Assembly: GCF_014200405.1 (NCBI RefSeq)
Contig: NZ_JACHBQ010000001.1
Location: 4,340,001 to 4,404,000 of the forward strand
Direction: 5' to 3'
Length of the DNA: 64,000 nucleotides
DNA from: Cryobacterium roopkundense
GTDB taxonomy: Bacteria; Actinomycetota; Actinomycetes; Actinomycetales; Microbacteriaceae
Shown here: positions 313 to 19,749 of the stretch, in pieces
Position numbering within the stretch: the first letter of the stretch is position 1
Layout of the letters: the number at the start of each line of letters is the position of its first letter
The notes under the pieces: model-generated
Database searches by the model: none
The model's input: only the letters and a program-made list of their open reading frames with translations
Told to the model about the DNA's origin: nothing
Made by a program: the position numbers and the translations under genes

Positions 313-1319
313 TGACCGCGTACCGCGAACTGGCCAGTCGAGGGATCTCGACTCGCGTCGCGGCCGACCTGGTCGGGATCCCTCGAGCGACAGCCACAAG
401 GAAACGACGCATTCCCGTGGCCCGGCCGGCGCTGATTCCGGCGAACAAGATCGGCGACACCGGCCGCCGCGAGATCCTTGACGTCGTCAATTCACAGCCG
501 TTCGTTGACCTGCCACCGATCCAGATCTACGCCCAACTGCTCGACGCAGACACGTACTTGTGCTCCATATCAACGATGTATCGGGTGTTGAACGAGAATC
601 AGCAGGTCAAGGACCGCCGCCGCCAGGCGCGCCATCCTGCCCGGGCGATCCCGGAACTGACGGCGACGGGACCCGGCCAGGTACTCAGCTGGGATATTAC
701 GAAACTCGCCGGCCCGATCAAGGGCAAGTACTTCGATGCTTACGTGATGATCGATATTTACTCCCGCTACATCGTCGGCGCCTATGTTCACGCGTCGGAA
801 TCCGGCGAGCTGGCGGTGGAGATGATGAAGGAGATCTTCGGCATTCACGGCGTCCCTCAGGTCGTTCACGCCGACCGCGGCACGTCGATGACGTCCAAGA
901 CCGTCGCGGCGCTGTTGTCTGACTTGGAGGTCACCAAATCGCACTCGAGGCCTCGGGTGAGTAACGATAATCCCTACAGCGAGGCCTGGTTCAAGACCCT
1001 GAAGTTCGCTCCGACGTTCCCCGAACGCTTCGGCTCCCTTGCCGACGCGAAGACGTTCATGGCCTCGTTCGTCGACGGCTACAACCACGAGCATCGCCAT
1101 TCCGGGATCGGCCTCAACACGCCAGCAGACGTTCATTACGGCCTCGCCGAGGCGAAGGCCATCGAACGGGCAGCGACGCTGGACGCGGCACGCGCACGCT
1201 TCCCAGAGCGATTCAGCACCAACAAGGCGCCGCAGATCCTGTCCATTCCCAAGACGGCATGGATCAATAAACCAGCCCCCAAACCTATCGAGAATGAAGG
1301 GCTCGAACTAGCCGCCTAA
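312..1319 (+). CDS. IS3-family transposase OrfB (DDE integrase)
   Basis: This 335-residue protein has the rve integrase core of IS3 OrfB. The catalytic triad is visible as D in SWDITKL, D in HADRGTS and E in NPYSEAWFK. An N-terminal HTH_21-like region precedes it, with the motif PPIQIYAQL. The length is normal for the family and the frame is open throughout, so it should be active. It encodes the same protein as the copy at 27228-28235, differing only by synonymous bases, which points to recent duplication within this genome. Confidence 0.95.
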   Translation: MTAYRELASRGISTRVAADLVGIPRATATRKRRIPVARPALIPANKIGDTGRREILDVVNSQPFVDLPPIQIYAQLLDADTYLCSISTMYRVLNENQQVKDRRRQARHPARAIPELTATGPGQVLSWDITKLAGPIKGKYFDAYVMIDIYSRYIVGAYVHASESGELAVEMMKEIFGIHGVPQVVHADRGTSMTSKTVAALLSDLEVTKSHSRPRVSNDNPYSEAWFKTLKFAPTFPERFGSLADAKTFMASFVDGYNHEHRHSGIGLNTPADVHYGLAEAKAIERAATLDAARARFPERFSTNKAPQILSIPKTAWINKPAPKPIENEGLELAA

Positions 1320-2118: not shown

Positions 2119-2309
2119 TCTGAATCCCCTTTGAATCAGCGGTCTCTGGCTGGTTGGCCACAGTGAACGCCACTTTCCACGGGTGGTCATCCTCCTGTCA
2201 ATACCCACAAATTCCCATTGCCTGTTCAGCCGAAACCTGCCAGAGTCACCAGAGAGGGGCCGGGGGTCACGATCCGCAGGAACGGGCCAGACGACTTCGC
2301 AGCCGAGCC

Positions 2310-2351
2310 TGATAACTTTATCAAAGTCAGAAATCCCTGATAAACTTATCA
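2310..2351. promoter_or_regulatory. Twin palindromic operators before the ATPase gene
   Basis: Two 14-bp palindromes of form TGATAA-N2-TTATCA lie at 2310-2323 and 2338-2351, 28 bp apart start to start. The second ends two bases before the ATG at 2354. The same pair with the same 28-bp spacing recurs at 13296-13337. They probably bind a dimeric regulator and would block transcription or translation start of the ATPase gene. Confidence 0.65.
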
Positions 2352-2353
2352 AC

Positions 2354-3589
2354 ATGCGCACTGCACTCAATAGCCCGTTCAGCCCTGGTTCCGACAGCAT
2401 CCCCGAAGTGTGGGCCGGCCGGACAGCCCAGCTCAGCGACTGGCGCGACGTCGTGCGGCCGCGGCGCATAGCCGGGCTCCCTGAGCGAGGAAGAACCATC
2501 CTCGGAGAAGCCGGTCTCGGGAAGTCCACCTTGGTCAGGCGCATCGCCAGAGATGCTGCTGCCGCGGGAGACTGGACCACCCAGCAGCTGCGCGTTCCCT
2601 CTGGCGCTGACCCCCTGAAGATCGTCGCCACGGCAATTCTGAAGCTCGCCGACCAAGCGGGCCTACCCACGTCGCGTGAGAGGCGCATCAAAGACGCCCT
2701 CAGTCGCGTGCAGGCTGTTGCTGCCAGCGGGATCTCGCTGTCCCTGCGCCAACAAGAGGGCCCTGAGCCGTACACGGTGTTGACGGCACTCTTGGTAGAG
2801 GTCGGCCGAGCCGCAATCGCGCGCGGCGATGTGATGGTACTCATCCACGTCGACGAGGTGCAGAACATCACCGACGAGAACGCCCTGTCCCAGTTGCTGA
2901 TCGCTCTCGGTGATGCCCTTGTGCACGAAGAAGAGATCACCGCGCCCGGCGGTGTGCGTGTGCTCCGGTCGTTGCCGATTGCTGTCTATCTCACCGGCCT
3001 GCCTGATTTCGCCGACATGGCCGGATCGCGCACCGGCGCCACGTTCGCGAGGCGCTTCAAGACAACCCTGCTTGAGGCAATTGCTGATGATGATCTGGTC
3101 TCTGCTCTTCAGCCGTTCATCATCGAGGGCTGGCCTGTGCCTGATGACCTAGGCGGTATCACGCGTGTCCACATGGAACCCACCAGTGTCGCAGCGATCG
3201 TCGAGCTCTGCTGCGGCGAACCGTTCCTGTTCCAGCTCGCTGGCGAGCAAGCCTGGTACGCCGGCAGTACCGACGTGATCACCCGCGCGCAGGTGCTGGT
3301 CGGCTGGAAAGCTGCCCGTGCAGAGGCAGCTACCCATGTCGAGCGGATCCTTGATCGCCTTCCCAAGCGCGAGCGCGACTTCGTTCAGGCCATGGCTGAG
3401 CGCCCGGCCCAGGAGCGCACTCTCACCCGTATTGCCCAGGACATGGGCTTCGCCAAGGCCACAGACGCCGGCCCCACATCGCAGCGGCTGGACTCCGTGC
3501 GCGGCATCATCGAGCGTGGCAAGCCGTACACGTTCCGTCACCGTGCTGTCGAGGCGTACCTGACGAGTGACTGGCCCAGCGTCGACTGA
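2354..3589 (+). CDS. AAA-type P-loop ATPase with C-terminal winged-helix-like region
   Basis: The product is 411 residues from the ATG at 2354; the upstream in-frame extension crosses the operators and is unlikely to be coding. Walker A is GEAGLGKST at about residues 51-59, and Walker B is the hydrophobic strand ending VDE at about 161-168. The C-terminal 70 residues (RERDFVQAMAE onward) resemble a winged helix. This architecture occurs in STAND/AAA_16-like ATPases of accessory regions that sense a partner or nucleic acid. The gene stands alone, divergent from the secreted-protein pair. The twin palindromes abutting its start suggest tight, perhaps autogenous, control. Its precise role is unknown. 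Confidence 0.75.
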   Translation: MRTALNSPFSPGSDSIPEVWAGRTAQLSDWRDVVRPRRIAGLPERGRTILGEAGLGKSTLVRRIARDAAAAGDWTTQQLRVPSGADPLKIVATAILKLADQAGLPTSRERRIKDALSRVQAVAASGISLSLRQQEGPEPYTVLTALLVEVGRAAIARGDVMVLIHVDEVQNITDENALSQLLIALGDALVHEEEITAPGGVRVLRSLPIAVYLTGLPDFADMAGSRTGATFARRFKTTLLEAIADDDLVSALQPFIIEGWPVPDDLGGITRVHMEPTSVAAIVELCCGEPFLFQLAGEQAWYAGSTDVITRAQVLVGWKAARAEAATHVERILDRLPKRERDFVQAMAERPAQERTLTRIAQDMGFAKATDAGPTSQRLDSVRGIIERGKPYTFRHRAVEAYLTSDWPSVD

Positions 3590-5147: not shown

Positions 5148-5510
5148 TGGGCTTGCCTGCTTCCTATTGACGAGATGGACGAACGAACATCACCAAGTGA
5201 TCAGCCGGGATCTCACTGCGCAGCTTCTCTATCGCTTCGAGACTGCTCGCTGCCTCAACGCGGGCAGGCGTTGCTTCAGCCGTGTCACGAGTGCGATGTG
5301 CGCGGTCCCAGAGCATCTATCTATTATCCGCCTCACAGGCAGACTGGCTCGCTGGGTCTGGACCACTATCTGAACGTGAGCTGCACATCTGATTTATTGC
5401 GGCAACACGTGATTCACGACGGAATCAGGTTCACAGCCCGCTTGGAGCATGCGCACGGGTAGCCCCGCTCGGCGTGCGGGGCGAGTCGGGTTCGTGGCCA
5501 CAAGAGACTC
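5148..5510. other. Gene-free stretch with an orphan promoter-like repeat
   Basis: This gap lies between the 215-residue gene and the end of the CoiA-like gene, both on the minus strand. I see no convincing gene in it. It holds a 58-bp segment (5390-5447) that closely resembles the promoter region of the nucleotidyltransferase gene at 8884-8941. Here, however, it reads into DNA antisense to the CoiA-like gene. Confidence 0.5.
5390..5447 (+). repeat. 58-bp promoter-region repeat, copy A
   Basis: An ungapped alignment with 8884-8941 gives about 42 of 58 identical bases. The conserved blocks are ATTGCGG, CACGTG, ATCAGGTTCACAGC and a shared CTTGGAG. The other copy drives the nucleotidyltransferase/HEPN pair. 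This one has no recognisable gene behind it and may be the remnant of a deleted homologous locus. Confidence 0.6.
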
Positions 5511-7085
5511 CTACGTTCCGTCGGTCCCGACCGGCGCAGAGGCAATAGGTATCGGGGCTATCGGCGGCACCGCGCGCACCACACGCGGCAGGTCTCTGTC
5601 CCGCCGCAGTCGCTCCTGGAAGGCCTTCAAGTCCGCAGCCCGACTTGGGTCGGTAATCATCACTTGCCCCTCAGCGTCCACCGGCACCGGGCGTACCTGC
5701 CCGCCCTGAGCACGCACGCGCGCGAAGACGCGCTCGCGTTCCTCCCTGATAGCTACCAAGTTCGACTCACGCTGCGCTTCCCGCGCACGAGCGGTGGCTT
5801 CCTCGTCCCGAAGGACACGCATCGCCTCCACCTTCGCGTCGGCCGCGAGCTGGTTCGCAACTTCGCGGAGGGCCAGTCGCTGGTGATAGGCACTCATCCA
5901 CACCCACGATTGCATGGCAGCCACGCGGGCGGTCCAGGATGCCTTGGAGATCACGGGCGAGAACCGTCCGCCCAAGGCCCTTCGGGCGTCTGCATTAGCT
6001 ATTTGGTCGCGGGGATTGGCTCCGCCGGCTGCACGAGGTGCTCGATCAGCAAGAGTCGCTGGCGGGTGGCGGAGCGCTTCGAGAACGTGCTGAATTGACG
6101 AGCCCTGCCAACCGGGATGACACCAGTGCGCCGGGATTTCCGTGCGTTCTTCGTTGGTGCGAATCTCGGCGGCATCCGCAAGCCATGCCTGGTCAAGCCA
6201 CGCAAACGGCGCAGCGCACCCCGGGCAAGAGAACCCCCATGCAAGGTCGGGCTGGTCTCCCGGGTGCGAGGGGCTGACAGGCACCGCCAACGACGCTTGG
6301 GGCAGATCGAGGCCCAAGTCTCCGGGCGACACACTGTCAGGCAGGTGCTCACCCTCCGTCCAGGTGCCCTCGCAGCGGTCGCACGCCTTCTCTGCGCGGC
6401 CGACGCTGTGGAACGTGATCGAGTGGACACGGCAGCTGTTGCATGCCTGCACGCCCCATCGCGTAGACGCGGCGATCGTGCCAGGCTGGGCGGGCGCCCA
6501 CCGGAGCGGGCTATTCAGCACCGCGACGATGACGGGCGCGAGCGGGATTTCTGGCGTGCCCTGAGTCCATGCCCCGTCGCGGACCACTGGCTCGTCGTCC
6601 ACGATGGCCACGCCGAGCGCAGCTGTAACCCCGTCCGTGAGGTGTTTGATGTGACGCACGAGCCAGAGGCATTCCACCTGATCGTTCGCGTACCGCTCCT
6701 GTCGGGCACGGTACACAGAGTGGATCTGCTTGGACCATTGCACCTCAAACGCGTACCTGCGGTCCCCACGGGTGGCCATGACATCCGCGATCCAGCTTCC
6801 GTCAGGGGCGCGGACTTCCTCGCTCGCTTCCCATCCGGCTTCTCGCGCGGCGAGCATGACCACGGTCTTAATGCGCAGGTGCTCCGGGGATTCAGGCTTG
6901 TGCTGGAACTCGCAAGCCGCGAGGTCGTAGTGGTAGAAGTGCTTCGTGCCCAACTTGGATCGACGCGGGATGCCACGAGTGCCGCAGCTCAGCGTGAGCT
7001 TGAGCTGTTTGAGGTCCGCCCAGTCTTCGTCCGCGATGAAGGGCGCCTGGTACTGGCGCTCACCGTCGTACGCCGTCAATGGCAT
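5511..7085 (-). CDS. CoiA-like competence nuclease-family protein
   Basis: This 524-residue protein matches the CoiA family layout. An N-terminal treble-clef-like segment (KHFYHYD) comes first. A PD-(D/E)XK-type nuclease core follows, with EHLRIK, D101 in WIADV, and E114/Q116 in AFEVQWS. Two Cys clusters (CNSC...CDRC at about residues 215-240 and CPGC later) look like zinc ribbons, and a long Arg/Glu-rich coiled coil near residues 400-470 ends the protein. A good GGAGG precedes the ATG at 7085. CoiA proteins process incoming DNA in competent firmicutes. In actinobacterial islands they may be DNA-damage or defence nucleases, which is my inference here. The coiled coil and zinc ribbons exceed the minimal family length. 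Confidence 0.7.
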   Translation of the reverse strand: MPLTAYDGERQYQAPFIADEDWADLKQLKLTLSCGTRGIPRRSKLGTKHFYHYDLAACEFQHKPESPEHLRIKTVVMLAAREAGWEASEEVRAPDGSWIADVMATRGDRRYAFEVQWSKQIHSVYRARQERYANDQVECLWLVRHIKHLTDGVTAALGVAIVDDEPVVRDGAWTQGTPEIPLAPVIVAVLNSPLRWAPAQPGTIAASTRWGVQACNSCRVHSITFHSVGRAEKACDRCEGTWTEGEHLPDSVSPGDLGLDLPQASLAVPVSPSHPGDQPDLAWGFSCPGCAAPFAWLDQAWLADAAEIRTNEERTEIPAHWCHPGWQGSSIQHVLEALRHPPATLADRAPRAAGGANPRDQIANADARRALGGRFSPVISKASWTARVAAMQSWVWMSAYHQRLALREVANQLAADAKVEAMRVLRDEEATARAREAQRESNLVAIREERERVFARVRAQGGQVRPVPVDAEGQVMITDPSRAADLKAFQERLRRDRDLPRVVRAVPPIAPIPIASAPVGTDGT

Positions 7086-7280
7086 GTGTTCCTCCGTGGC
7101 TGGCTGAGGCTGAGCCTAGCGAGGACCACTGACACTCTCTGTTCTCGCTGCAAGTGGCCGCACCGGCCGGTTTCAGCGCGACGCGCCTTGTACCTCCACG
7201 CTCGGTTCGAAACGGCGACCGCCGGCTCAACCGCCGCCGGGGTAACTGGTCGGCACGGCGAGCATGACCCGCGGCGAGGT

Positions 7281-7979
7281 CTACCGAGGATCCTGCCATC
7301 CTGGCGCGAGCTGATCGAGGAGCGCGATGCGCTCCGCACTGATCTGATCACTGCGGTTTTCGTTCCGCCTGTTCTTCACCCAGGTGGCAAGGCGCCGCTC
7401 ATCAGCGGCGGCGCTGCGGCGGTTCGGCCAGCACCCCGTCCGCCTCACGTACGCGCCGAGCTCACCCGCGGTCCGCTCCCACGCGGTCTGCCGTGAACCG
7501 TCACCCTCCCAGCCGGGACAGGTCACGTTCAACCAGGCAGTCAGCTCCGCGTTCAAAGAACCGCTGTGATGCGCTACCCGCTGGGCAGTCAGCCACGCCC
7601 CGAGGCGCTGTTCGTCTGCGGTTTCGCCGTTCTGACGGGGAAGCCGCCCTGTCGTCTGTATGTGACGCTGCAACGCGACCGTGATCTCTGTCCGGCTCCG
7701 TTGAGGTGGCTTCGGTGATTCGCGCCAGCCTGGCAAAGACTCATCCAGCTTCATCTGACGGTGGAGCGTCATCCACGGCTCGCCACTCCTGGCGCCACGG
7801 CGCTGGATAGCAAGCCAGCCGCCCGGGTGGCTTTCGCCACGAGGAATCGAGCCACTGGCGCGAAAAGCCGAGACAGCGTGTCCGAGGTAGAGCATCCACT
7901 TTTGATCGTCAGCCGTCATGGGGCCAAGGATATCGGCCCGAGCTGCTGGTGAGGGGAGCTGGGCACTCGAGGAAGACAC
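7281..7979 (-). CDS. Helicase-associated (HA) domain repeat protein
   Basis: The 232-residue product consists of three repeats of about 60 residues, each with G-x-x-P, LG-x-W(V/L)-x-x-QR-like and a terminal PGW (ending near residues 85, 158 and 228). This is the helicase-associated domain (PF03457 type), a small helical fold thought to bind nucleic acid, here without any helicase motor. I used the GTG at 7979; an in-frame ATG at 7919 is an alternative, and neither has a strong ribosome site. It lies downstream of a 53-residue gene and a membrane-protein gene on the same strand, and upstream of the CoiA-like gene, so a minus-strand operon is likely. Confidence 0.65.
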   Translation of the reverse strand: MSSSSAQLPSPAARADILGPMTADDQKWMLYLGHAVSAFRASGSIPRGESHPGGWLAIQRRGARSGEPWMTLHRQMKLDESLPGWRESPKPPQRSRTEITVALQRHIQTTGRLPRQNGETADEQRLGAWLTAQRVAHHSGSLNAELTAWLNVTCPGWEGDGSRQTAWERTAGELGAYVRRTGCWPNRRSAAADERRLATWVKNRRNENRSDQISAERIALLDQLAPGWQDPR

Positions 7980-8019
7980 CTAGCCGGTTACGAGCTCGCT
8001 GTCTTGGCGAGAAAAGTAA

Positions 8020-8181
8020 CTACTTCGCCGCAGGTGTTTGAGAAAGCTTGACGATCCACTTTGGCGTCTTGTCGTTGCCGGCGCGGCGGTCTGCGTTCAC
8101 GCGAACTCGCGCGGCTACGGCCTGAGCTTTCGGGCTAGGCCGGCTGTCGCTCTGACGTTGCTGACTCTCGTTGATCGTCAT
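8020..8181 (-). CDS. Small basic protein, 53 aa, unknown
   Basis: The start at 8181 is set by a perfect AGGAGG six bases upstream; the longer in-frame extension has no such signal. The product is 53 residues, polar and rich in Arg, Lys, Gln and Ala, ending TPKWIVKLSQTPAAK. No domain is recognised. It lies 25 bp after the membrane-protein gene and about 40 bp before the HA-domain gene, all on the minus strand, so it is probably the middle cistron of a three-gene unit. The strong ribosome site suggests it is made in quantity. Confidence 0.55.
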   Translation of the reverse strand: MTINESQQRQSDSRPSPKAQAVAARVRVNADRRAGNDKTPKWIVKLSQTPAAK

Positions 8182-8206
8182 GGTGTGCCTCCTGATCCTG
8201 TACTTA

Positions 8207-8650
8207 TTATGCGCGTGGGCGCCTGAAAAAACTACGTATGACCCTAAAGATTCGAGCGCGGCTGCCAGTTGGTATAGGCGCATCATCGTCTTCGCTGGCA
8301 CGTGCTTCGCTGGAAGGACCGGCGGATACGTCCGTGGGCCCCCTGTACAGGAACCACTGCGTTGCCGCTTGGATAAATGCTCGTTCTGGCTCGGTCTTCG
8401 ATTCGAGCGCGTCGAGCATTTCGAGGCCAGTTATCTGCGTGGTCTCCTCCGCCGCCAGTGTCAGGTTCAATGCGTACTCGGCGCGCTTCCACCATTGCTC
8501 CTTGCGGGCGTTTTTCGTCGTCGCGATGTACGCGATAACGGCAGCGACGACGGCCAAGCACCCTGCGAATCCGGGAGACTGTGCGAAATCCGGGAACCAG
8601 AAGAGGTACGTGCCGCAGATGTCGCGCAGATTGTCGAGTACCGGGCCCAT
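8207..8650 (-). CDS. Single-pass membrane protein, unknown
   Basis: This 147-residue protein starts at the ATG at 8650; the open frame extends upstream without a clear signal. One hydrophobic segment near residues 24-43 (AGCLAVVAAVIAYIATTKNA) is followed by a basic stop-transfer region and a long cytoplasmic helical tail with acidic and Ser-rich parts. I do not recognise the family; the WWKRAEYALNL segment resembles single-pass proteins encoded beside toxins and effectors, without proof. It heads a minus-strand unit and lies downstream of the GTGTTT-N9-AAACAC palindrome that also precedes the Fic gene. Confidence 0.55.
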   Translation of the reverse strand: MGPVLDNLRDICGTYLFWFPDFAQSPGFAGCLAVVAAVIAYIATTKNARKEQWWKRAEYALNLTLAAEETTQITGLEMLDALESKTEPERAFIQAATQWFLYRGPTDVSAGPSSEARASEDDDAPIPTGSRARIFRVIRSFFRRPRA

Positions 8651-8766
8651 CCGCCCAGCATGCCAGAAGCACCAGCACGCCAGAGACAGAGGACGAGCCG
8701 GACGTAAATACGCAACGACGCATCTCGTGTTTGCCAGGACAACCACCACTAGGCCCGCTGTGATTT

Positions 8767-8797
8767 GTGTTTAGCAACGGTAAACACGAATTAGAGC
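8767..8797 (-). promoter_or_regulatory. GTGTTT-N9-AAACAC operator, copy 1
   Basis: A palindrome, GTGTTT at 8767-8772 and AAACAC at 8782-8787, is followed by GAATTAGAGC. Read toward the membrane-protein gene, the order is GCTCTAATTC then the palindrome. The Fic gene has the same order and 9-bp spacing (10968-10998). It is probably an operator overlapping a promoter, shared by two transcription units. Confidence 0.65.
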
Positions 8798-8883
8798 GGG
8801 ACTAGTGTGCCACTGGGTAACAGGAAGCGGTGTAGAACGGCGCTTCGATGTCCCGGCCTCTATCCGAGAGTTAACTGAACACC

Positions 8884-8941
8884 TGAGTCATTGCGGAATC
8901 ACGTGTAACCTGTAAGTATCAGGTTCACAGCTTACTTGGAG
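8884..8941 (+). promoter_or_regulatory. Promoter region of the NTase/HEPN pair (58-bp repeat, copy B)
   Basis: This 58-bp segment ends in the ribosome site of the nucleotidyltransferase gene (TTGGAGG). It is about 72 percent identical without gaps to 5390-5447. The conserved ATCAGGTTCACAGC block and CACGTG are candidate regulator sites. Confidence 0.5.
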
Positions 8942-8947
8942 GATTCA

Positions 8948-9586
8948 ATGGATCTCGGGATGCCGCTTGTCACTGTCTTCGGTCGTACTGAGGGCGCAGT
9001 TCTGACGGCCCTCGCGCGCGGGTCGGCGTCGGTAAACGGTCGCCAGATCGAACGTCTCCTCGGCGGAACGGTGAGCATCAAGGGCGTGCGGGGAGCCTTG
9101 GAGCGTTTGACTCGAGTCGGTCTCGTGCTGGCAGCGTCCCGACAGGCCGAGACGCTCTACCGTGTGAATCGGGAGCACCTGCTCTGGTCGACCGTGGAGA
9201 CGGCGATCAACGCTTTGACTGAGTTGCGCCAGCGCATCCGCGATCTTGCGAACGAGAGCGCCCCGAACAGAACCGCTGTCGTGCTTTATGGCTCAGTCGA
9301 ACGAGGTGAAGCCACAGCCGACTCCGACGTCGACCTCCTGGTCGTGTTCCCTGACGAAATACCCGCGAGTCTCCGCGAGGACTTCGTCTATGAGTTGGGG
9401 CGACGCGTAGAGCTCTGGACTGGCAACCCGGCACAGGTCATCCAGATCACCGTTGGTGGCCTTGTGGAATCCGCAGGACGCGGTGACGCGCTTGTCGATT
9501 TGTGGCTGAACGACAGCGAAGTCCTGATCGGTGAACTTCCGACGGTAGTGTCGACGGTGCTCCCGACGACACTTCATCACCAGTAA
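8948..9586 (+). CDS. MntA-like nucleotidyltransferase with N-terminal winged helix
   Basis: The 212-residue product has an N-terminal winged-helix region (residues 10-75, with NGRQIERLL and a beta wing) and then a minimal nucleotidyltransferase core: G115-S116 and D127-x-D129 in GSVERGEATADSDVDLL, the GS-x10-DxD signature. In HEPN/MNT (type VII) toxin-antitoxin modules, this enzyme adenylylates and silences the HEPN toxin. The fused DNA-binding domain suggests it also represses its own promoter. The start is the ATG at 8948, with GGAGG upstream. Its TAA overlaps the next gene as TAATG. Confidence 0.8.
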   Translation: MDLGMPLVTVFGRTEGAVLTALARGSASVNGRQIERLLGGTVSIKGVRGALERLTRVGLVLAASRQAETLYRVNREHLLWSTVETAINALTELRQRIRDLANESAPNRTAVVLYGSVERGEATADSDVDLLVVFPDEIPASLREDFVYELGRRVELWTGNPAQVIQITVGGLVESAGRGDALVDLWLNDSEVLIGELPTVVSTVLPTTLHHQ

Positions 9587-9999
9587 TGGCACGCCAGACG
9601 GCCAAGCGCCAGAACATCGACCGGCCCGCGATCCAGGCTCGGCTCGCGGACGCACTGAAGTTCCTCGAAGCAGCGCAGCTGTACGTCGAAGACGACAGTG
9701 TGTCCTCCTGGAAGGTAGCCGGCTCGAATGCGGTGAACGCCGGCATCGCGGCCTCAGACGCTATCTGCGGCCTTGTCCTCGGCGAGTACTCCCGCGGCGC
9801 AGACCACAAGGACGCCTTGGCCCTTCTCCAAGAAGCAACTCAGCCGGACACTGCGCCGCGCAGGCATCTCACCGCGTTACTGGCCGATAAGAGCGGCTAC
9901 CAATATGGAACAGCTGGTGTCCGACAGGATGCGGCTAAGGCGCTCGTCGAGCACGCTGCGAAACTGGTGGCTGAGGCAGAGCGTCGCTCGAAGCGATAA
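9586..9999 (+). CDS. HEPN-domain protein (probable HepT-like toxin)
   Basis: This 137-residue all-helical protein overlaps the nucleotidyltransferase gene by one base. The region SNAVNAGIAASDAI...YSRGADHKDA resembles HEPN domains of MNT partners. The R70-x3-H74 pair is close to, but shorter than, the usual R-x4-6-H RNase motif, so it may be an RNase toxin or a variant lacking activity. Context makes a toxin-antitoxin pair likely. A non-toxic HEPN scaffold is the alternative. Confidence 0.7.
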   Translation: MARQTAKRQNIDRPAIQARLADALKFLEAAQLYVEDDSVSSWKVAGSNAVNAGIAASDAICGLVLGEYSRGADHKDALALLQEATQPDTAPRRHLTALLADKSGYQYGTAGVRQDAAKALVEHAAKLVAEAERRSKR

Positions 10000-10062
10000 C
10001 TTCCGAATCGAACAGTCGCCCGCTCAACACGCCCGATCGACACATCGGCCCGGAAGGACCTC

Positions 10063-10335
10063 ATGACCAACGTCATCGAACCATCGGTACCGCAAAGTGA
10101 AACGGGACATTGCCCCGCCTGTGGGACCTGGGCATGCGACGACTGCGGCGCCCAGCGCCCATACGCCAGCAGGTTTTCAGAAAAGTCGCAGCAGTGTGCG
10201 AGCTGCCGAAGCCTCAGCGGACAGATGATGCCGAGCCGTCACCGCGAGCGTCGCGCCGACGACCACGCAACCTCATATCAGTCGCGCCTCGCCGGCGGTG
10301 GCGCGCCGCGCTACCCGCTCGGGCCAGAGCGCTAG
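10063..10335 (+). CDS. Small zinc-ribbon-like protein
   Basis: This 90-residue ORF starts at ATG 10063 after an AAGGA ribosome site. It holds three cysteine pairs in the first 50 residues, CPACG, CDDCG and CASC, which would form a zinc ribbon or knuckle. The tail is basic and low in hydrophobicity. It follows the HEPN gene by 63 bp and could be a third member of that unit. No family is assigned, and coding status rests on the ribosome site and the cysteine spacing. Confidence 0.45.
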   Translation: MTNVIEPSVPQSETGHCPACGTWACDDCGAQRPYASRFSEKSQQCASCRSLSGQMMPSRHRERRADDHATSYQSRLAGGGAPRYPLGPER

Positions 10336-10451
10336 ATCACCCCTTGGGCAGCGCGTGTTGCCGTGCTCGACCACCCTCCAGCTGAGCTGCGCCTAAACAA
10401 GCTCGAAGCGGTGCTATCGGTCACGAGACCTCGCTTATGCAAGTGGAACAG

Positions 10452-10670
10452 TCAGCGATACGTTGCCGCAAAACCGACACCGAATCCCACGATGAAATTC
10501 GAGATGACGCCACCGGCAATTACCCAAACACCTGCAACAATCCAGCCGAGTCGGCTGCGAACAATCTCCTCGTGGGTTCGTTCCCGAACCGGCGTCGTGA
10601 TTGGAACGCCAGACATGGCTGCACCTTGTTGGTAGGAGGGTGACGTCGTCGGATCGAAATTGTCAGCCAC
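10452..10670 (-). CDS. Small membrane protein, 72 aa (tentative)
   Basis: From the GTG at 10670, preceded by AGGGGG, this gives 72 residues. A polar N-terminus (THEEIVRSRLG) is followed by one hydrophobic region of about 30 residues (GWIVAGVWVIAGGVISNFIVGFGVG) that could form a hairpin. It is unrecognised. It converges with the zinc-ribbon ORF. Coding is uncertain. Confidence 0.35.
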   Translation of the reverse strand: MADNFDPTTSPSYQQGAAMSGVPITTPVRERTHEEIVRSRLGWIVAGVWVIAGGVISNFIVGFGVGFAATYR

Positions 10671-10796
10671 GCTGCCCCCTGCTTCGTCTAGGCGCCCAGC
10701 TGCGCCACCACCCAAGGCTATGGGTGGCTGGTTGTCGCCGCCAGTGGTGTGAACGGCCGCGCAAAATGTCGCCGTTGCTCCCGCGTTTGAGCGGGC

Positions 10797-10879
10797 TGCC
10801 AAATAAAGTGTCGCCGTCGTGGTCCAAATGGAGTGTCGCGCCGAGCAAGCCGCTTTGGCAGGCGACACTTTATTTGGCA
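10797..10879. repeat. Perfect 19-bp inverted repeat, 45-bp spacer
   Basis: TGCCAAATAAAGTGTCGCC at 10797-10815 recurs exactly in reverse complement at 10861-10879. An imperfect third copy lies between them at about 10824. Multiple short terminal repeats are typical of IS21/IstAB-type ends, so this may be a collapsed IS remnant. A stem-loop regulator is the alternative. Confidence 0.6.
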
Positions 10880-10967
10880 ATCCAACGCGCTCTCCGGCCC
10901 CGTCAACCGGCGCAGGCCCTGCTCGACGACGTCTAGGCGCCGGCAGGAGCTAATCACCACTCTTTTC

Positions 10968-10998
10968 GCTCTAATTCGTGTTTAGCAATACCAAACAC
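10968..10998 (+). promoter_or_regulatory. GTGTTT-N9-AAACAC operator, copy 2, before Fic gene
   Basis: GCTCTAATTC is followed by GTGTTT (10978-10983), nine bases and AAACAC (10993-10998). This is the same order and spacing as the site upstream of the membrane-protein operon at 8767-8797. It ends 26 bases before the ATG at 11025. Confidence 0.65.
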
Positions 10999-11024
10999 CA
11001 TCTAGATGCGGTAAAGTTGTGCTT

Positions 11025-12248
11025 ATGCACGCTGACATCACCAACACTGCTTGGCCGCCACACCAGGTTGAGACTCTGCCGTGGCGTCAGCAGATACGCA
11101 GTGGCACGCGTGAAGACCGGGAGCTGAGTTCGGTCGACGCGACAATCCCGCCTCTGATCCGGACGCTCGACTACATGCCGCCCCTGGCAGTGTTGTTGGA
11201 AACCGAGAAAGCCCTTCTCGCCGTCGCGCAGGCTGACACTGACGCCCAAGCAGGCACTGACGCGGAAGGCCATTCAGCGGCGCTGAGCCGTTTCATGGTG
11301 CGTTCGGAATCGGTGGCTTCCTCGAAGATCGAGCACATCTCTGCCTCGGCGCTGGACTATGCCCAAGCGGTTGCAGGCAACCGAGGCAACGCCTCGGCGA
11401 TGAGCATAGTCGCCGCCTCGGCTGCACTCCACGAACTCATCACCACCGTTGAGCAGCACGGTCGTTTCGAGCTAGAGCACATCATCAGCGCGCATCGCGC
11501 GCTGATGTTAGACGACCCCAGCGAAGCAAGCTACGCCGGTCGTCTGCGGGACATGCAGAACTGGATCGGCGGAAGCGACTACTCACCCCGTGATGCCCTG
11601 CACGTGCCGCCGGCGCCTGAACGAGTCGCTGAGCTCATGACAGACCTGGTGGCGTACCTCAACCGCGACGACGTTCCCGTGATGGTGCAGGCCGCGATCG
11701 GTCACGCCCAGTTCGAGTCGATCCACGCCTTCACCGACGGCAACGGTCGCATCGGACGAGCGATGGTATCCGCTGTGCTGCGTCGCCGCGGCGTCACCAG
11801 AAACGCTGTTGTGCCGCTGGCCAGTGGTCTCCTTGCCCGCCGTGAGGACTACTTCGCATCGCTCGGCGCGTACCGCCGCGGCGACCCCGCGCCGGTTGTG
11901 AGCTTGTTCGCGCGCTCAGCGCGCGCGGCGGCCGAGTGCTCGCGCGGCACGATCGCTCGCCTGAAGGCGCTGCCTGATGTGTGGGCAGCAGAGCTGCGCC
12001 CTCGCGCCGGATCAGCGGCCGCTGCTCTGATCCAGGCGTTCTATGACCACCCCGTGATGAGTGCGGCCGAGATCGAGGCACGGTCCGGGTCCGCGGCTTC
12101 CCAAGCCTACCGGGCCATCGACCAGCTCACCCGAGCCGGGTACATCCAGGAAATCACCGGGCGCAAAAAGAACCGTGTGTGGGCCGCGTCCGAGGCGCTG
12201 GCCGAGTTGGATGATCTTGACCGACGCATCCAGGCCGCGATGGCGTGA
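11025..12248 (+). CDS. Fic-domain AMP transferase family protein
   Basis: The product is 407 residues from ATG 11025; a GTG at 11019 is also in frame. The Fic signature HAFTDGNGRIGR lies at about residues 236-247, giving the catalytic His and the anion-binding GNGR loop. The N-terminal region carries a class II-type inhibitory helix, SSKIEH (about 95-100), where the usual residue after Glu is Gly or Asn rather than His. A C-terminal winged helix (about 340-400, with ARSGSAASQAYRAIDQL) suggests DNA binding. The family transfers AMP or other phosphate groups to proteins. The target is unknown. It stands alone behind the palindrome shared with the membrane-protein operon. Confidence 0.85.
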   Translation: MHADITNTAWPPHQVETLPWRQQIRSGTREDRELSSVDATIPPLIRTLDYMPPLAVLLETEKALLAVAQADTDAQAGTDAEGHSAALSRFMVRSESVASSKIEHISASALDYAQAVAGNRGNASAMSIVAASAALHELITTVEQHGRFELEHIISAHRALMLDDPSEASYAGRLRDMQNWIGGSDYSPRDALHVPPAPERVAELMTDLVAYLNRDDVPVMVQAAIGHAQFESIHAFTDGNGRIGRAMVSAVLRRRGVTRNAVVPLASGLLARREDYFASLGAYRRGDPAPVVSLFARSARAAAECSRGTIARLKALPDVWAAELRPRAGSAAAALIQAFYDHPVMSAAEIEARSGSAASQAYRAIDQLTRAGYIQEITGRKKNRVWAASEALAELDDLDRRIQAAMA

Positions 12249-12274
12249 AGATGAGCTTGCGAGGACGCAGGGGC

Positions 12275-13771: not shown

Positions 13772-15130
13772 TCACGAGGACTCCGTTTCAGATTTCCGGT
13801 AGTCCGGATCCCTCAGATATGCCCCAGTGTGGTATCCGTCGGCCGGGTGGGACCGAGTGGACGGCAGGCTTTTCAATGACGCGAGCGATTTCATAGTGCT
13901 CCCGGTTGGGATAAAAACGTGAACCCACTCCTCGGACTCAGCAACGATCGTAACCAGCTGCCGGCCGAATAGTCCTTCTTTGGTTGCTTGTGCTCGAACC
14001 CATTGCCTGTACTCCGCGTAGATGACGCCGAAGAGCACGATGGGCGGGAAATGTTGGGTCTGAGTGAGCCAGAACTCTCGGACGTTGTCATCTACAGGAA
14101 CCCTGAAGCTGGTCGCCAGATACGAAACTGGAGTCGTCACAGCTTGGGGCCTCGGCGCGGCGTGCGAGGCTTCGGGGTCCTGTCCATCACGACAGGACGG
14201 GATGAGACTGACGGCGCCGGACTGGATAACGTAGCGGAACATTGTGGTCGCCAGCCCGGGATGCCGGATTGCCATCATTCCCCGCTGAGTTCTCAGGTCG
14301 ATAGCTGCTGCGATGATCGTGAGGACCTGGGTCTGATTGACCACCTCGGGCAGCGGGTGGCCAAAACGCTCATGGAAAACAGCTGTCAAATCGATGCCAA
14401 ACAAACCGCGAGCCGCGATTCTGATGATCTCGTCCCTGTTGAGCTGCTGGACCCAGTACAGGTAGTCGGTCACCTGGCCAACGATCGCTGGAGTAGTCCT
14501 ACCTAGCTTCAGCTCAATGCTGTGGATTACCCCAGTCGGAGCTATAGCGAGAAGATCGAGAATACCGAACGACGTCGCCACCTGTTTGCCGATGATCAGC
14601 AGATCCGGTCCTAGAATCCACGGATTCGCCTGTAGGTGGTCCTCCAGCTCCGTCTCGAGCCGGAACGCGGGCAGCGGGGTCGATCGTGAAGCACGGGCTT
14701 TCGCCCTCTGACCGCGTGCGAAGGCTCTGGACGCCGGTCCTTCGGCCAAGGAGAATGAATCGCGTGTGAACCAGATCCAACCCTTGCGGCGCCAGTGAAT
14801 CGCGACGATCTGATTGAAGAAGTATTTTTCCTTTCGTGGGGCCGTGGCCCAAGCTTCATTTTGGGACAGGAGCTTGTTGAAGAGTCTCGAAAAAGATGGA
14901 CGAGCTTTCGTGGTCTTCCTCACGTGTCGGATGTAGAGCCCTGCGCCCCGTGCCCATTCGTCAGAGGTTTCCTCGCCCGTCAGCTCCAAGAACAACGGCC
15001 TCAGAACACTCCCAATTTGGCGCGGTTCGGCGCGAATGGTGTCCTGTGTCCGACTAATCACGGCCGGCAGCTGAGCCGTCTCGTCTACGTGATCTGCTCG
15101 GAACGGATACCAAAAGCCTGCTTCATTCAT
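13772..15130 (-). CDS. NucS/DUF91-like PD-(D/E)XK endonuclease
   Basis: The 452-residue product has a central restriction-endonuclease-like core at about residues 155-235: E161 in LETELEDHL, the NPWILG turn, D192 in GILDLLAI, and E206-x-K208 in SIELKLG, followed by a GQVTDYLYWV helix. This pattern matches the catalytic half of NucS/EndoMS mismatch endonucleases and their DUF91 relatives. The N-terminal 150 residues and the C-terminal 200 are unlike NucS, so it is not the housekeeping repair enzyme. It lies between an Xre/MbcA-like gene upstream and a 76-residue gene downstream on one strand. A defence or DNA-processing role is inferred. Confidence 0.7.
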   Translation of the reverse strand: MNEAGFWYPFRADHVDETAQLPAVISRTQDTIRAEPRQIGSVLRPLFLELTGEETSDEWARGAGLYIRHVRKTTKARPSFSRLFNKLLSQNEAWATAPRKEKYFFNQIVAIHWRRKGWIWFTRDSFSLAEGPASRAFARGQRAKARASRSTPLPAFRLETELEDHLQANPWILGPDLLIIGKQVATSFGILDLLAIAPTGVIHSIELKLGRTTPAIVGQVTDYLYWVQQLNRDEIIRIAARGLFGIDLTAVFHERFGHPLPEVVNQTQVLTIIAAAIDLRTQRGMMAIRHPGLATTMFRYVIQSGAVSLIPSCRDGQDPEASHAAPRPQAVTTPVSYLATSFRVPVDDNVREFWLTQTQHFPPIVLFGVIYAEYRQWVRAQATKEGLFGRQLVTIVAESEEWVHVFIPTGSTMKSLASLKSLPSTRSHPADGYHTGAYLRDPDYRKSETESS

Positions 15131-15193: not shown

Positions 15194-15937
15194 TCAACGC
15201 CAATCCGAAGCTTCCACGATCTCAATGACGTCGTGAACGTCGCCGCCGTCTCGGAGCCACTGAGCCGGGGTCTTGGGGCCCTCGGCGACGAGGCTTGTCT
15301 GCGGTGTTGCCATGAAGCCGGCCACGCTTTGCCAGCTCCATCGCGGGGACATGACCTGGGCGATCGCGGTGAGCCCTGGGAGGAGCTTCGAGGGAGACCC
15401 GGCGTCGAACTGCCAGACGGGAAAGCGGAACCGGCCGGAGATCTCGACCGCGTACAAGCGCCCCTCTGCGACGGCCGTGCCAACGACTTCCTCCTTCCAG
15501 CTCAGGAAACCGGAGACGACGTCCAACGAGATGGTTTCGAAAAGGCCCAACAGCCACGCCTCAGTTGCGGCAACGTGCAAGCATCCTCGGTTCACGGCTT
15601 CCGACGTCTTGGCCCACTCTTCAGCGCTGAACGCGCCAGATTCGATCAGAAAGCGGACTTCGGTCGCCGAGTATTCGTCCGGCGAGATGGGTTTCATTGC
15701 CGTGAGCATGTCCGTGAGTGCCTGAACGAAGTACTCAGGATCGTCCGACAAGGCGGCGACGGCTTCGGCGAGGCGTCGGACAGCTGCGGCGGAGACATGG
15801 ACTGCTTCCGGCTCACTGCAGACTCCGTCGGTGGACGCGCGGGGTCTTGGTTGGGGATTGTCGGTCACGGATCGAATGCTTTCATCTCCGGGGGAGGAAG
15901 GCAACGGGGCGACGTGGTGTGAAAACCATCTCAGCAA
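15194..15937 (-). CDS. MbcA/Xre-antitoxin-like protein
   Basis: This is a 247-residue protein. The C-terminal 85 residues carry the pattern FPVWQFDAGSPSKLLPGLT...GFMATPQTSL...TPAQWLRDGGD, which resembles the toxin-binding region of MbcA/ParS/Xre-type antitoxins (DUF2384-related). An N-terminal region lists several helices (SAAAVRRLAEAVAAL...) that could contact DNA. No RES- or MbcT-type toxin gene is adjacent; instead the NucS-like nuclease follows after 63 bp. It may regulate or neutralise that nuclease, or may be an orphan. The start at 15937 is uncertain; an internal start is possible. Confidence 0.5.
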   Translation of the reverse strand: MLRWFSHHVAPLPSSPGDESIRSVTDNPQPRPRASTDGVCSEPEAVHVSAAAVRRLAEAVAALSDDPEYFVQALTDMLTAMKPISPDEYSATEVRFLIESGAFSAEEWAKTSEAVNRGCLHVAATEAWLLGLFETISLDVVSGFLSWKEEVVGTAVAEGRLYAVEISGRFRFPVWQFDAGSPSKLLPGLTAIAQVMSPRWSWQSVAGFMATPQTSLVAEGPKTPAQWLRDGGDVHDVIEIVEASDWR

Positions 15938-17065: not shown

Positions 17066-17425
17066 ATGAGTGGCTGGAGTATCGACCCGTCGGGCGTGCA
17101 GTCAGTTCTCGCGTCGGTGGTAACCGCCGCGTCCGAGCTGCGCACGGCCCTCGACTCCGCGTCGACGTCGTTCGCCGAACTCGCGACAGGTGCCGGCCCG
17201 AACATGGCCGATGTCCCGGCCGCGATCCAGGCCCTGATGGAGAGCGAACAGGGCCGCCTCACGGCGATCGGCAACCGCATCACCGCCGGGTCCCTCGGCG
17301 CGAGCACGGCCACGATCGGGTACATCCAGGGGGACGAGGAGATGGCGGCCACCGCGCAGACGGCGGCCGGCCACGCCGCGTCATCCGGTGATTTGTCGTT
17401 CTTCAACGCGGCTGGAACGCCCTGA
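17066..17425 (+). CDS. ESX-type small helical protein (DUF6507-like)
   Basis: The 119-residue product begins MSGWSIDPSGVQSVLASV, the pattern seen in small proteins encoded directly before LXG/WXG-type toxins in actinobacteria (DUF6507 type). Three helices rich in Ala follow. Its last base overlaps the first base of the toxin ATG (TGATG), so synthesis is coupled. It probably acts as an export adaptor for the toxin. Confidence 0.65.
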   Translation: MSGWSIDPSGVQSVLASVVTAASELRTALDSASTSFAELATGAGPNMADVPAAIQALMESEQGRLTAIGNRITAGSLGASTATIGYIQGDEEMAATAQTAAGHAASSGDLSFFNAAGTP

Positions 17426-19749
17426 TGCTGGCATCTGGCGAGGTTCAACCCGATAGCGATCTAATCAAGCCCGAATTGATCCCGGGCGACGACATCGACC
17501 CCGCCGTGATCGCCGGGTCCGCGACCGGTTTTTCGAGCGCGGCAACCACCGTCACCGATAAGGGCGCTGCCGTCGTCACCCAGTGGGCCGCGCTGTCCGG
17601 CGTGTATGCGGCCCCGGAGTCACCCGAACTTCTCGACGTGATGAACCCGGTCACGGTGGATTCTGCCGCTCTCGGCCAGACCTTCGCCTCCCTGTCGAAG
17701 ATCATCGCGAATTTTGCAGACGACGTGGCCCCCGTAAAGACCCGACTAGCCGCTCTCCGAGAAGAAGCTCGCGTGTTCGTCGCGCGGGTAGCGGACGGCA
17801 TCACTGTCAACATCGGGGATATGGAACATCCAGCGCGTGACGCTGGAATCGTCAGCTTCATGGTTACCGACTGGGTGGACATGGGCCCTCAAGTCATAAG
17901 CTGGCGCCAGCATCAAGAGTCAGTGGACATGAACAAGGCCTTGGTCCACCGGGTGAACGTAGAAGTCGCGGCCCTCCAGTCAATCCAAGCTGACTGCGTG
18001 AACGCGATCAACGCCCTGCGCACCGACACGGAAGTCGCCGCGATCATCCCGATCACGGCCTCCGACCTTGATTCGGGGGCTATAGCCCTGCCCTGGGGAG
18101 CTGCTACGGAGGGTGATCGTTCGTACACGGAGCTGTTCGGCGTCGGGTTCGTGAGTTCTCTGAAGGCCATGTGGGATGGCAGCGCCGCCCTGCTTAGCTA
18201 CAACGCCGTATCCGGACGCTGGGGTGACCTCGGCACCACCGGAACGGCCCTGTCGAGTCTGGGGATGACGGTCGCTGGGGTTGCGCTGTTCTTCGGGGCC
18301 GGTCCCGCGCTTGCGTGGAGGGAGGACGTTCACGTGCCGGGATGGTTGCAGCCGGTGGATGACTTCATGGACGACGCACTGGCCCACTCAAGCGCTGCAG
18401 GCAACGGATTCATCGCGGCCGACCAATGGGCAGACAATCCTGCCTCCGCGGCGGGTTCGGTGGCTGCGAACGTCCTCACCCTGGCTATTGGCGGACCGGC
18501 GGTCGCTGGAGGGAAGGCTGCAACGCTCGGTGGGCGGGCGGTAACGATCATCGGTCACGCGGCCGAATTCGTCGTACCGATGGGGTCCTGGGCCGTGCGC
18601 GGAGCCACCTCGGGCCTGCTGCATGCTGGGCAGGGGCTGTCAGTGATAGCGGACGCTGCCCGGCTGAGCCTCGTCACTGGCGTGAGCACTTCCCGTGTCG
18701 CTCTCGCGGAAGCCTTGCGCACAGTCGGTGATTCCATTCCTGCCGTCAGCATTGTTCCGGGATACTCCGCCGTCACCCCGGACGGTGCCGGGTTCGGTGC
18801 TGCTCCGCGCCTGGTGGTTGGTGAGCCAGGAAGCGGCGGCAGCTTTCTGCACAGCGTCGCTGACCGCGTAGATGCGACGCGTGCGGACGGGCCAGTTCCG
18901 CCCGCCGCAGGTCAACTCGATGTGCAGCCAACGAGCACGTCCGACACGCTCACGGCCGATACGGGAGCCGCCGTTCATCGGCCGGACGGTGACGGGGTGG
19001 GCGGCGGCCTTGAGGTCAAGGGGGACGTCGGGCCGCCTGAGATGGGCCCTCGTGCGATTCCGCAGGATTATCCACGCCCACCCGTAGGGCATGAGGTACA
19101 CGCCTCTGGGCGCGATCTACCGGGCAGCCGGACGCCGTTCGCGGCGCGGACGGATTTGCTCCCCGACACCGTTTATCACGTCGAAGGTCGAGGCGATTTC
19201 TACACAAATTCGCACGGCACCGTCAACTACGTTGAAACGACCTATGGCGGAACACGAAACCTCAACGCGGATCTCATGCATCCGCAACCGGACACGACCT
19301 ACGTCGTGCATCCGAGCGTGGTTGACCCGATTGATGGGGCGAGTTACGCGCACGTATTTCAGACGGACGACCAAGCACACACGGTGCTGGCTCACACAGA
19401 TCGTCTCGCGTTCGGCGATGCTGATCGGTCTCCGTCTATCCAGTCGACCGTCGCCGCTTGGGGAGGCGCGCAATATGATGGAGGCCATCTGTGGGCCAAG
19501 GGCTTCGGTGGGGGCGGGGAGTACACCAACATGTCCGCCATGCTCACCGAGCTCAATCGTGGCGGTGGGAACAGCTACTTCAACCTTGAGAACACATGGC
19601 GTGGCATGTTGAAAGCGGACCCGAATACCAAGATCGAGGTCGACATCCGACCTCACTACCCAGACGGAGAAAAAGTGCCAGACGTATTCACGGTTCGGTT
19701 CGCGATCGACGGCGAACGCTCAACGACGCGGCGGTTTGAGAATGGCTGA
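17425..19749 (+). CDS. Type VII polymorphic toxin with C-terminal DNA/RNA nuclease
   Basis: The product is 774 residues. The N-terminal 220 residues are helical, like an Esx/LXG targeting domain. The middle (about 260-470) has hydrophobic Gly/Ala-rich segments (VAGVALFFGAGPALAW, VLTLAIGGPAVAGG) that may insert in membrane. A Pro/Asp-rich linker leads to the last 180 residues, which match NucA/Endonuclea_NS_2-type nucleases: D-G-G-H-L at about 685-689 with the catalytic His, then FGG, NMSAMLTELN and a C-terminal PDVFTVRF strand. It has no Sec signal. The stop overlaps the immunity gene by eight bases. It probably attacks nucleic acid in competing cells. Confidence 0.8.
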   Translation: MLASGEVQPDSDLIKPELIPGDDIDPAVIAGSATGFSSAATTVTDKGAAVVTQWAALSGVYAAPESPELLDVMNPVTVDSAALGQTFASLSKIIANFADDVAPVKTRLAALREEARVFVARVADGITVNIGDMEHPARDAGIVSFMVTDWVDMGPQVISWRQHQESVDMNKALVHRVNVEVAALQSIQADCVNAINALRTDTEVAAIIPITASDLDSGAIALPWGAATEGDRSYTELFGVGFVSSLKAMWDGSAALLSYNAVSGRWGDLGTTGTALSSLGMTVAGVALFFGAGPALAWREDVHVPGWLQPVDDFMDDALAHSSAAGNGFIAADQWADNPASAAGSVAANVLTLAIGGPAVAGGKAATLGGRAVTIIGHAAEFVVPMGSWAVRGATSGLLHAGQGLSVIADAARLSLVTGVSTSRVALAEALRTVGDSIPAVSIVPGYSAVTPDGAGFGAAPRLVVGEPGSGGSFLHSVADRVDATRADGPVPPAAGQLDVQPTSTSDTLTADTGAAVHRPDGDGVGGGLEVKGDVGPPEMGPRAIPQDYPRPPVGHEVHASGRDLPGSRTPFAARTDLLPDTVYHVEGRGDFYTNSHGTVNYVETTYGGTRNLNADLMHPQPDTTYVVHPSVVDPIDGASYAHVFQTDDQAHTVLAHTDRLAFGDADRSPSIQSTVAAWGGAQYDGGHLWAKGFGGGGEYTNMSAMLTELNRGGGNSYFNLENTWRGMLKADPNTKIEVDIRPHYPDGEKVPDVFTVRFAIDGERSTTRRFENG

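What the first reader, a model, noticed from the sequence alone, without database searches (positions are those of the whole stretch)
8767..10998. Shared operator links a membrane-protein/HA/CoiA operon to a Fic gene
GCTCTAATTC-GTGTTT-N9-AAACAC occurs in the same gene-facing order upstream of the leftward unit (8650 to possibly 5511) and of the Fic gene. The two operators form an inverted pair around the NTase/HEPN module. Joint control of a CoiA-like nuclease, a helicase-free HA-repeat protein, a small basic protein, a single-pass membrane protein and a Fic enzyme is not a described system to my knowledge. It is the strongest candidate here for a new multigene defence or signalling unit.
Basis: partly seen in the sequence, partly recalled or inferred. 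Interest (0 to 1): 0.75.

Follow-up and report, generated by a model that had tools for sequence, protein, structure and literature searches.

The report
Fic toxin's own operator, found twice
The shared DNA motif is most likely the binding site with which a family of Fic enzymes (AMP-attaching, toxin-like proteins) switches off its own gene; this genome has an unusual second copy beside a neighbouring membrane-protein gene, but the neighbouring genes do not look like a conserved new defence system.

Summary
The motif is real: two exact copies, 8767-8797(-) and 10968-10998(+), no others in the 4.53-Mb genome. It is the core of an operator that belongs to the Fic gene. Many Fic relatives carry, just upstream, an array of 12-bp half-sites spaced 10-7-10. 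Its sequence drifts between species and co-varies best with the recognition helix of Fic's C-terminal winged helix (partial r 0.39, permutation p 0.0003). So Fic most likely represses itself, as shown for CccR (PMC9755527). The proposed CoiA/HA/membrane/Fic system is not conserved: CoiA relatives occur in 11 and membrane-protein relatives in 13 of 248 other family genomes, never both; CoiA, membrane, NTase or HEPN relatives in 0 of 67 Fic neighbourhoods. In three relatives the operator occurs once, at fic. The second copy here is thus probably lineage-specific: a rearranged array (6-10-7, 8722-8792) reaching towards the membrane gene, perhaps placing it under Fic control, perhaps a relic. New variant of a known kind.

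The parts
10951..11025 (+). O2: canonical four-half-site Fic operator (half-sites 10951-10962 <, 10973-10984 >, 10992-11003 <, 11014-11025 >; spacing 10-7-10); the last half-site overlaps the GTG 11019 start and the first base of the ATG 11025 start of fic
8722..8792 (-). O1: second Fic-type array, rearranged (half-sites 8722-8733 > (weak), 8740-8751 <, 8762-8773 >, 8781-8792 <; spacing 6-10-7); the expected right outer half-site 8803-8814 is absent
11019..12248 (+). fic: Fic enzyme with C-terminal winged helix (recognition helix about residues 360-372); starts GTG 11019 or ATG 11025
8207..8650 (-). small membrane protein gene nearest to O1 (ATG 8650; an in-frame GTG at 8749 lies inside O1)
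   Evidence: ORF list; relatives in 13 of 248 other family genomes; the 5 relatives looked at are compatible with the 8650 start, their own starts being unproven
   Evidence: Inner ATG of ORF 8020-8301; no family above cut-off
   Evidence: Pfam HA 2.4e-16, two stretches
5511..7085 (-).
   Evidence: Pfam CoiA_nuc 1.1e-6; relatives in 11 of 248 other family genomes
8948..9586 (+). MntA-like nucleotidyltransferase, between O1 and O2; ATG 8948 behind GGAGGA (8938-8943)
   Evidence: Pfam NTP_transf_2 4e-10; NCBIfam MntA 29.7 bits, below the cut-off of 60; sequence
9586..9999 (+).
   Evidence: A relative lies beside the NTase relative in 3 of 3 neighbourhoods fetched

Best explanation
The shared motif is the DNA-binding site of the Fic protein itself. 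This Fic is an AMPylase-type enzyme with a C-terminal winged helix. Fic, as a dimer or a pair of dimers, binds a symmetric array of four 12-bp half-sites (spacing 10-7-10) that covers the fic promoter down to the start codon and shuts the gene off. Shown by computation: the array, its conservation in position but not in sequence, and its co-variation with the Fic recognition helix. In this genome a second, rearranged array (O1) lies between the leftward membrane-protein gene and the NTase/HEPN pair. I commit to the reading that O1 puts the leftward promoter (membrane protein, perhaps the small protein and the HA gene) under Fic as a local, lineage-specific gain; this last step is inferred and only about as likely as not. 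The confidence given is for the operator being Fic's own.
For: Palindromes upstream of fic: over the 67 loci the mean is 10.85 of 13 paired against 8.87 in control windows of the same loci, 35 of 67 at p<=0.05. Outer half-sites at exactly offset 10 on both sides: 6.44 and 5.94 of 10 matches against 2.65 and 2.68 (sd 0.17) in shuffles, every other offset at most 3.42 (50 of 97 items passed the caller, one of the 97 a duplicate). 38 of 96 arrays (the window's own included) exceed the 99th percentile of 576 control windows and 21 of 96 exceed their maximum. Operator distance tracks recognition-helix distance with the catalytic part held constant: r 0.26, p 0.0005 (72 of 97 items); r 0.39, p 0.0003 (38 of 96 items). 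Catalytic-part distance with the helix held constant: r 0.03, p 0.21 and r 0.08, p 0.06. The seven best of the 14-residue windows (taken every 3 residues along the protein) all lie in the winged helix. Model and solved relatives show the winged helix. Precedent: CccR represses itself through its C-terminal HTH and a palindrome (PMC9755527, section 10 part 1 read). For O1: its inner pair scores highest in the window with a half-site profile that was built without O1 (33.6; O2, which is in the profile, 29.0), it has a third strong half-site (15.9) and a weaker fourth (7.0) towards the membrane gene.
Against: No binding or expression data. 32 of 67 loci are not at p<=0.05 and 58 of 96 arrays are not above the control 99th percentile, so not every relative has a recognisable array; the automatic caller misplaced some. 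The helix test uses related sequences and its permutations do not fully remove shared ancestry. O1 has no sigma-70-like promoter in either direction, but neither has the fic promoter under that scan (0 found in 8600-11100); O1 lacks the Fic-like -10/start context. As to direction, O1's flanks read a little better rightward (both flanks p 0.0008; upstream flank p 0.0001, downstream 0.27) than leftward (both flanks p 0.0022; upstream 0.07, downstream 0.006) (local alignment 25 against 23). Targets beyond fic are not the rule: among 59 of 67 other loci that could be scanned only one doubtful second site appeared (L071), none with a stricter earlier scan of all 67, and three whole relatives have one site each.
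Confidence: 0.82

Rival explanations
1. About O1 only: O1 is a relic, a decayed copy of a Fic promoter region left by insertion or rearrangement of modules in this island, without a present function.
For: O1 and O2 lie in a 55-nt direct repeat of 71% around the NTase/HEPN module. Another 95-nt direct repeat of 71% brackets the leftward unit (5356-5450 and 8850-8944; 67 of 95 identical against a mean of 25.4, sd 4.7, for random pairs). The upstream flank of O1 matches Fic upstream flanks on the + strand (p 0.0001). Fic and about 250 bp upstream are shared with Cryobacterium sp. Y29, where homology starts at 10748, so neighbours change.
Against: The inner half-sites of O1 fit the half-site profile better than those of O2 (33.6 against 29.0), which neutral decay would not favour; there is a further weak half-site on the left.
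Confidence: 0.35
2. About O1 only: O1 is an auxiliary operator for fic. Fic bound at O1 and O2 (2.2 kb apart) loops the DNA to tighten repression, and the genes beside are bystanders.
For: Both sites fit the same half-site profile and are the only two in the genome.
Against: Relatives do with a single site.
Confidence: 0.15
3. One reading: a new multigene defence or signalling system made of CoiA-like nuclease, HA protein, small basic protein, membrane protein and Fic under joint control.
For: Shared operator, found only at these two places in the genome.
Against: Gene set not conserved: of 248 other family genomes none holds both the CoiA and the membrane relative; no second shared gene in 12 fetched neighbourhoods of those relatives; neither gene near 67 Fic relatives; in G143 the CoiA, NTase and Fic relatives lie over 300 kb apart on one contig. 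No PADLOC model matched the CoiA, HA or membrane protein.
Confidence: 0.05
4. The palindrome is read by another regulator (for example the NTase's own N-terminal winged helix) and only happens to lie before fic.
For: The NTase N-terminus has a weak DUF7342 hit that I read as winged-helix-like (below cut-off), and the gene lies between the sites. In G079 an NTase relative has a distant Fic-domain match about 1 kb away.
Against: The array precedes fic in loci with no NTase relative in the flanks held, and it co-varies with the Fic recognition helix.
Confidence: 0.04

Closest known systems
CccR of Yersinia pseudotuberculosis (PMC9755527; passages, and section 10 part 1)
   Same: Fic domain plus C-terminal HTH; a palindrome near the -35/-10 boxes of its own gene; shown there to repress itself, dimer needed
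   Different: CccR has two 10-bp boxes with a 26-bp spacer; here four 12-bp half-sites at 10-7-10. CccR is a secreted effector; secretion was not tested here
SoFic / Sofic anti-phage Fic (PADLOC SoFic; PDB 3eqx, 3zcn; EcSofic, PMC12249575: abstract, passages and section 4 read)
   Different: Far below the NCBIfam SoFic equivalog cut-off (59.6 of 550 bits). EcSofic has a small downstream antitoxin gene; here blastn homology to the closest relatives ends at 12248-12269, right behind fic. The EcSofic paper has no 'winged', 'palindrom' or 'DNA-binding'
Fic protein of Mycobacterium marinum, PDB 7cb8 (entry title only; no paper found)
   Different: Its operator, if any, was not examined here
Fido/Fic domain survey (PMC2686095; passages)
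   Same: Suggested in 2009 that HTH domains fused to Fic may regulate expression of fic, and noted the winged helix of the Shewanella structure
   Different: No operator in the passages seen
CbFic2 of Coxiella burnetii (PMC10628234; passages)
   Same: Fic with C-terminal winged helix that binds DNA
   Different: Binds random DNA with high affinity; the passages leave open whether it has a specific site

Membership tests
SoFic-type Fic (PADLOC SoFic) | Match to the SoFic model over the Fic and C-terminal domains | tested here: met
   PADLOC SoFic E 2e-62, residues 56-396
SoFic equivalog (NCBIfam NF046030) | Score above the curated cut-off | tested here: not met
   59.6 bits against 550: related, not filed as SoFic itself
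Active Fic AMPylase | HPFx(D/E)GN(G/K)R motif (as printed in the PMC2686095 abstract, seen in the listing) | tested here: met
   HAFTDGNGR at 236-244, with A for P; H236, D240, G241, N242, G243, R244 invariant in 27 sequences
Fic with self-inhibitory N-terminal helix (class II; motif recalled as (S/T)xxxE(G/N)) | SxxxE followed by G or N | tested here: inconclusive
   S101, S102, I104, E105 invariant in 27 sequences, but the next residue is H here and R in the consensus
CccR-like self-repressing Fic-HTH | C-terminal HTH | tested here: met
   Helices 333-343, 349-356, 360-372 and wing strands in the model, block pLDDT 83-94
CccR-like self-repressing Fic-HTH | Palindromic site over the promoter of its own gene | tested here: met
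   By sequence only:
CccR-like self-repressing Fic-HTH | Two 10-bp boxes with a 26-bp spacer | tested here: not met
   Four 12-bp half-sites at 10-7-10: works like CccR, operator geometry differs
CccR-like self-repressing Fic-HTH | Measured binding and repression | not testable with these tools
   Needs gel shift, footprint, reporter
Proposed CoiA/HA/membrane/Fic system | Gene set conserved together | tested here: not met
Proposed CoiA/HA/membrane/Fic system | Same palindrome upstream of a second unit elsewhere | tested here: not met
   One doubtful second site in 59 scanned loci; single genome-wide site in G143, G129 and G140
MntA/HepT (type VII toxin-antitoxin) for the genes between the operators | MntA model above cut-off | tested here: not met
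   29.7 bits against 60; HEPN-like neighbour in 3 of 3 relatives fetched

The most novel reading that the evidence does not exclude
Actinobacterial SoFic-like enzymes are one-component regulators with fast-diversifying, recognition-helix-matched four-half-site operators, and in this strain the Fic protein has captured a second transcription unit (membrane protein, small protein, HA protein, perhaps CoiA-like nuclease) as a local regulon, tying a toxin-like AMPylase to neighbouring island genes.
Probability: 0.33. Interest if true: 0.7.

Novelty: new variant of a known kind. Interest (0 to 1): 0.5.

Why it matters
A toxic Fic protein must be kept low; in the papers found here only CccR comes with a defined operator of its own. 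A conserved operator geometry whose sequence co-varies with the recognition helix makes direct tests easy in many species, offers candidate orthogonal operator/regulator pairs, and gives a way to find genes that a Fic protein regulates in trans. The second array in this genome is such a candidate.

Tried and rejected
Rejected: recombination or transposon ends as the meaning of the inverted pair; the same array stands alone before fic in relatives. Rejected: NTase as the target of O1; the NTase has its own SD and O1 ends 155 nt upstream of its ATG. Rejected: a family-wide fifth half-site (none stands out). Left undecided: O1's direction from flank alignment (lean slightly rightward, the half-site layout leftward).

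Led nowhere: viral-contig scan with the O1 pattern (0 matches) and with the CoiA-like protein (4 stretches, no relative confirmed); plasmid search with 5400-11100 (one 107-bp match annotated CoiA); paper searches for 7CB8 (5 unrelated papers) and for the M. marinum Fic (0 papers). Paper searches for a Fic or SoFic operator; listings only, except four papers opened in part (PMC12249575, PMC9755527, PMC10628234, PMC2686095). Of these CccR is the only Fic shown to bind its own promoter. The library holds open-licence PMC papers only. The automatic operator callers misplaced some sites (for example L037, L038, L042, L071); counts include these. 8 of 67 loci had no called operator.

Full report
1. 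The motif GCTCTAATTCGTGTTT-N9-AAACAC is present without mismatch at 8767-8797 (-) and 10968-10998 (+), and a search of the whole 4.53-Mb genome with up to 3 mismatches finds nothing else except the other strand of the left site; a symmetric pattern agrees. The left site (O1) is the centre of a near-perfect palindrome (23 of 27 arm positions, the best of its kind in the window), so its apparent direction carries little weight.

2. The motif belongs to the Fic gene. I fetched 67 relatives of the Fic protein with up to 10 kb on each side and 30 loci from family genomes, one of them the window's own. Many have a palindrome just upstream of fic although its sequence differs between species. Over the 67 loci the upstream palindrome score averages 10.85 of 13 against 8.87 in control windows of the same loci; 35 of 67 are at p<=0.05 and 32 are not. 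Anchoring on the inner pair (50 of 97 items passed the caller) shows further half-sites at exactly 10 nt on both sides: 6.44 and 5.94 of 10 positions match, against 2.65 and 2.68 (sd 0.17) in shuffles and at most 3.42 at any other offset. The operator is thus an array of four 12-bp half-sites, < 10 > 7 < 10 >. With a joint score, 38 of 96 loci (own included) exceed the 99th percentile of 576 control windows and 21 exceed the control maximum of 47; 58 of 96 do not. No fifth half-site stands out in the family.

4. How it most likely works. In O2 the last half-site (11014-11025) overlaps the GTG 11019 start, the first base of the ATG 11025 start and a possible -10 (TAAAGT, 11012-11017), so bound Fic would block its own promoter; a leaderless start is inferred. 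The Fic-HTH protein CccR does this by experiment, with another box geometry (PMC9755527, section 10 part 1). That HTH domains fused to Fic may regulate fic was suggested in 2009 (PMC2686095, passages). For EcSofic the wild type is toxic and hard to clone (PMC12249575, section 4), which fits a need for tight control. Binding and repression here are inferred.

5. The second site. O1 holds three strong half-sites (8740-8751 <, 8762-8773 >, 8781-8792 <; scores 15.9, 16.8, 16.8) and a weaker one at 8722-8733 > (score 7.0, reached by 0.04% of 12-mers on one strand); the right outer position 8803-8814 is not a half-site (score -12.9). Its spacing is 6-10-7, a shifted version of the alternating pattern, and it extends towards the membrane gene. 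The other direction leads to the NTase, whose start (8948) has its own SD and lies 155 nt from the array. The sigma-70 scan finds no promoter in 8600-11100 at all, so it does not decide. Flank comparison leans slightly rightward (both flanks p 0.0008 against 0.0022; alignment 25 against 23). I favour the leftward gene as target but only just; a relic is nearly as likely, since 71% direct repeats of 55 nt (O1/O2) and 95 nt (5356-5450/8850-8944) suggest that modules here were shuffled.

6. The proposed system is not conserved. CoiA relatives: 12 of 249 family genomes including the own (at most 5 candidates a genome scored); membrane-protein relatives: 14 of 249; only the own genome is in both lists. 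NTase relatives: 42 of 249. Around the 67 Fic loci no relative of CoiA, membrane protein, NTase or HEPN was found and one weak HA match (L085); flanks are shorter than 10 kb in part of the loci. One family genome (G129, L175) has a 71-residue HA match 5 kb upstream of its Fic and a relative of window 15194-15937 downstream. One NTase relative (G079) has a distant Fic-domain match about 1 kb away, so NTase and Fic-type genes can meet elsewhere. In G143 the CoiA, NTase and Fic relatives lie at about 24 kb, 350 kb and 1,353 kb of one contig. The 12 fetched CoiA and membrane neighbourhoods share no second gene with the window. In G143, G129 and G140 the Fic operator occurs once in the genome, at fic (up to 3, 2 and 3 mismatches); of 59 other loci scanned around fic one (L071) shows a doubtful second site.

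7. Verdict. The palindrome is a Fic self-operator of a kind with one experimental precedent that I found, but with a different geometry and a broad, helix-matched diversity in actinobacteria; the second copy is a lineage-specific peculiarity worth testing. The searches for earlier descriptions are listed in Tried and rejected; the library lacks most subscription papers, so absence there is weak evidence.

Noticed in passing
window 5356-5450 and 8850-8944: 95-nt direct repeat, 71% identical; the right copy is the NTase upstream region with its SD, the left copy lies just behind the CoiA gene, so the repeat brackets the whole leftward unit.
   Followed up: partly
window 8907-8925: The NTase upstream region holds its own small palindrome AACCTG-N7-CAGGTT over a possible -10 (TAAGTA), with the same 7-nt spacer as the Fic inner pair.
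   Followed up: no
window 10797-10879: Perfect 19-bp inverted repeat TGCCAAATAAAGTGTCGCC with 45 nt between the arms; the homology of the Fic region to Cryobacterium sp. Y29 (L036) begins at 10748, just outside it.
   Followed up: no
window 13772-15130: Protein with a NucS-like stretch (below cut-off) and a strong match to PADLOC candidate PDC-S11 (6.2e-33).
   Followed up: no
window 312-1319, 2183-3589, 17425-19749, 21178-22707: Integrase-core transposase, AAA ATPase-like protein (below cut-off), large protein ending in a DNA/RNA non-specific endonuclease domain, and a MobA/VirD2-type relaxase: the neighbourhood looks like a mobile island.
   Followed up: no
window 13441 (centre): Second-best long palindrome of the window: 21 of 27 arm positions pair.
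   Followed up: no
L068 4320-4391: In Microbacterium helvum a second 72-bp stretch matching the Fic catalytic region (84.7%) lies 1.3 kb upstream of the Fic gene, perhaps a remnant of another fic.
   Followed up: no
L147 3130-3423 (genome G079): A distant Fic-domain match (34% over 99 residues) about 1 kb from an NTase relative: NTase/HEPN and Fic-type genes may meet in other islands.
   Followed up: no
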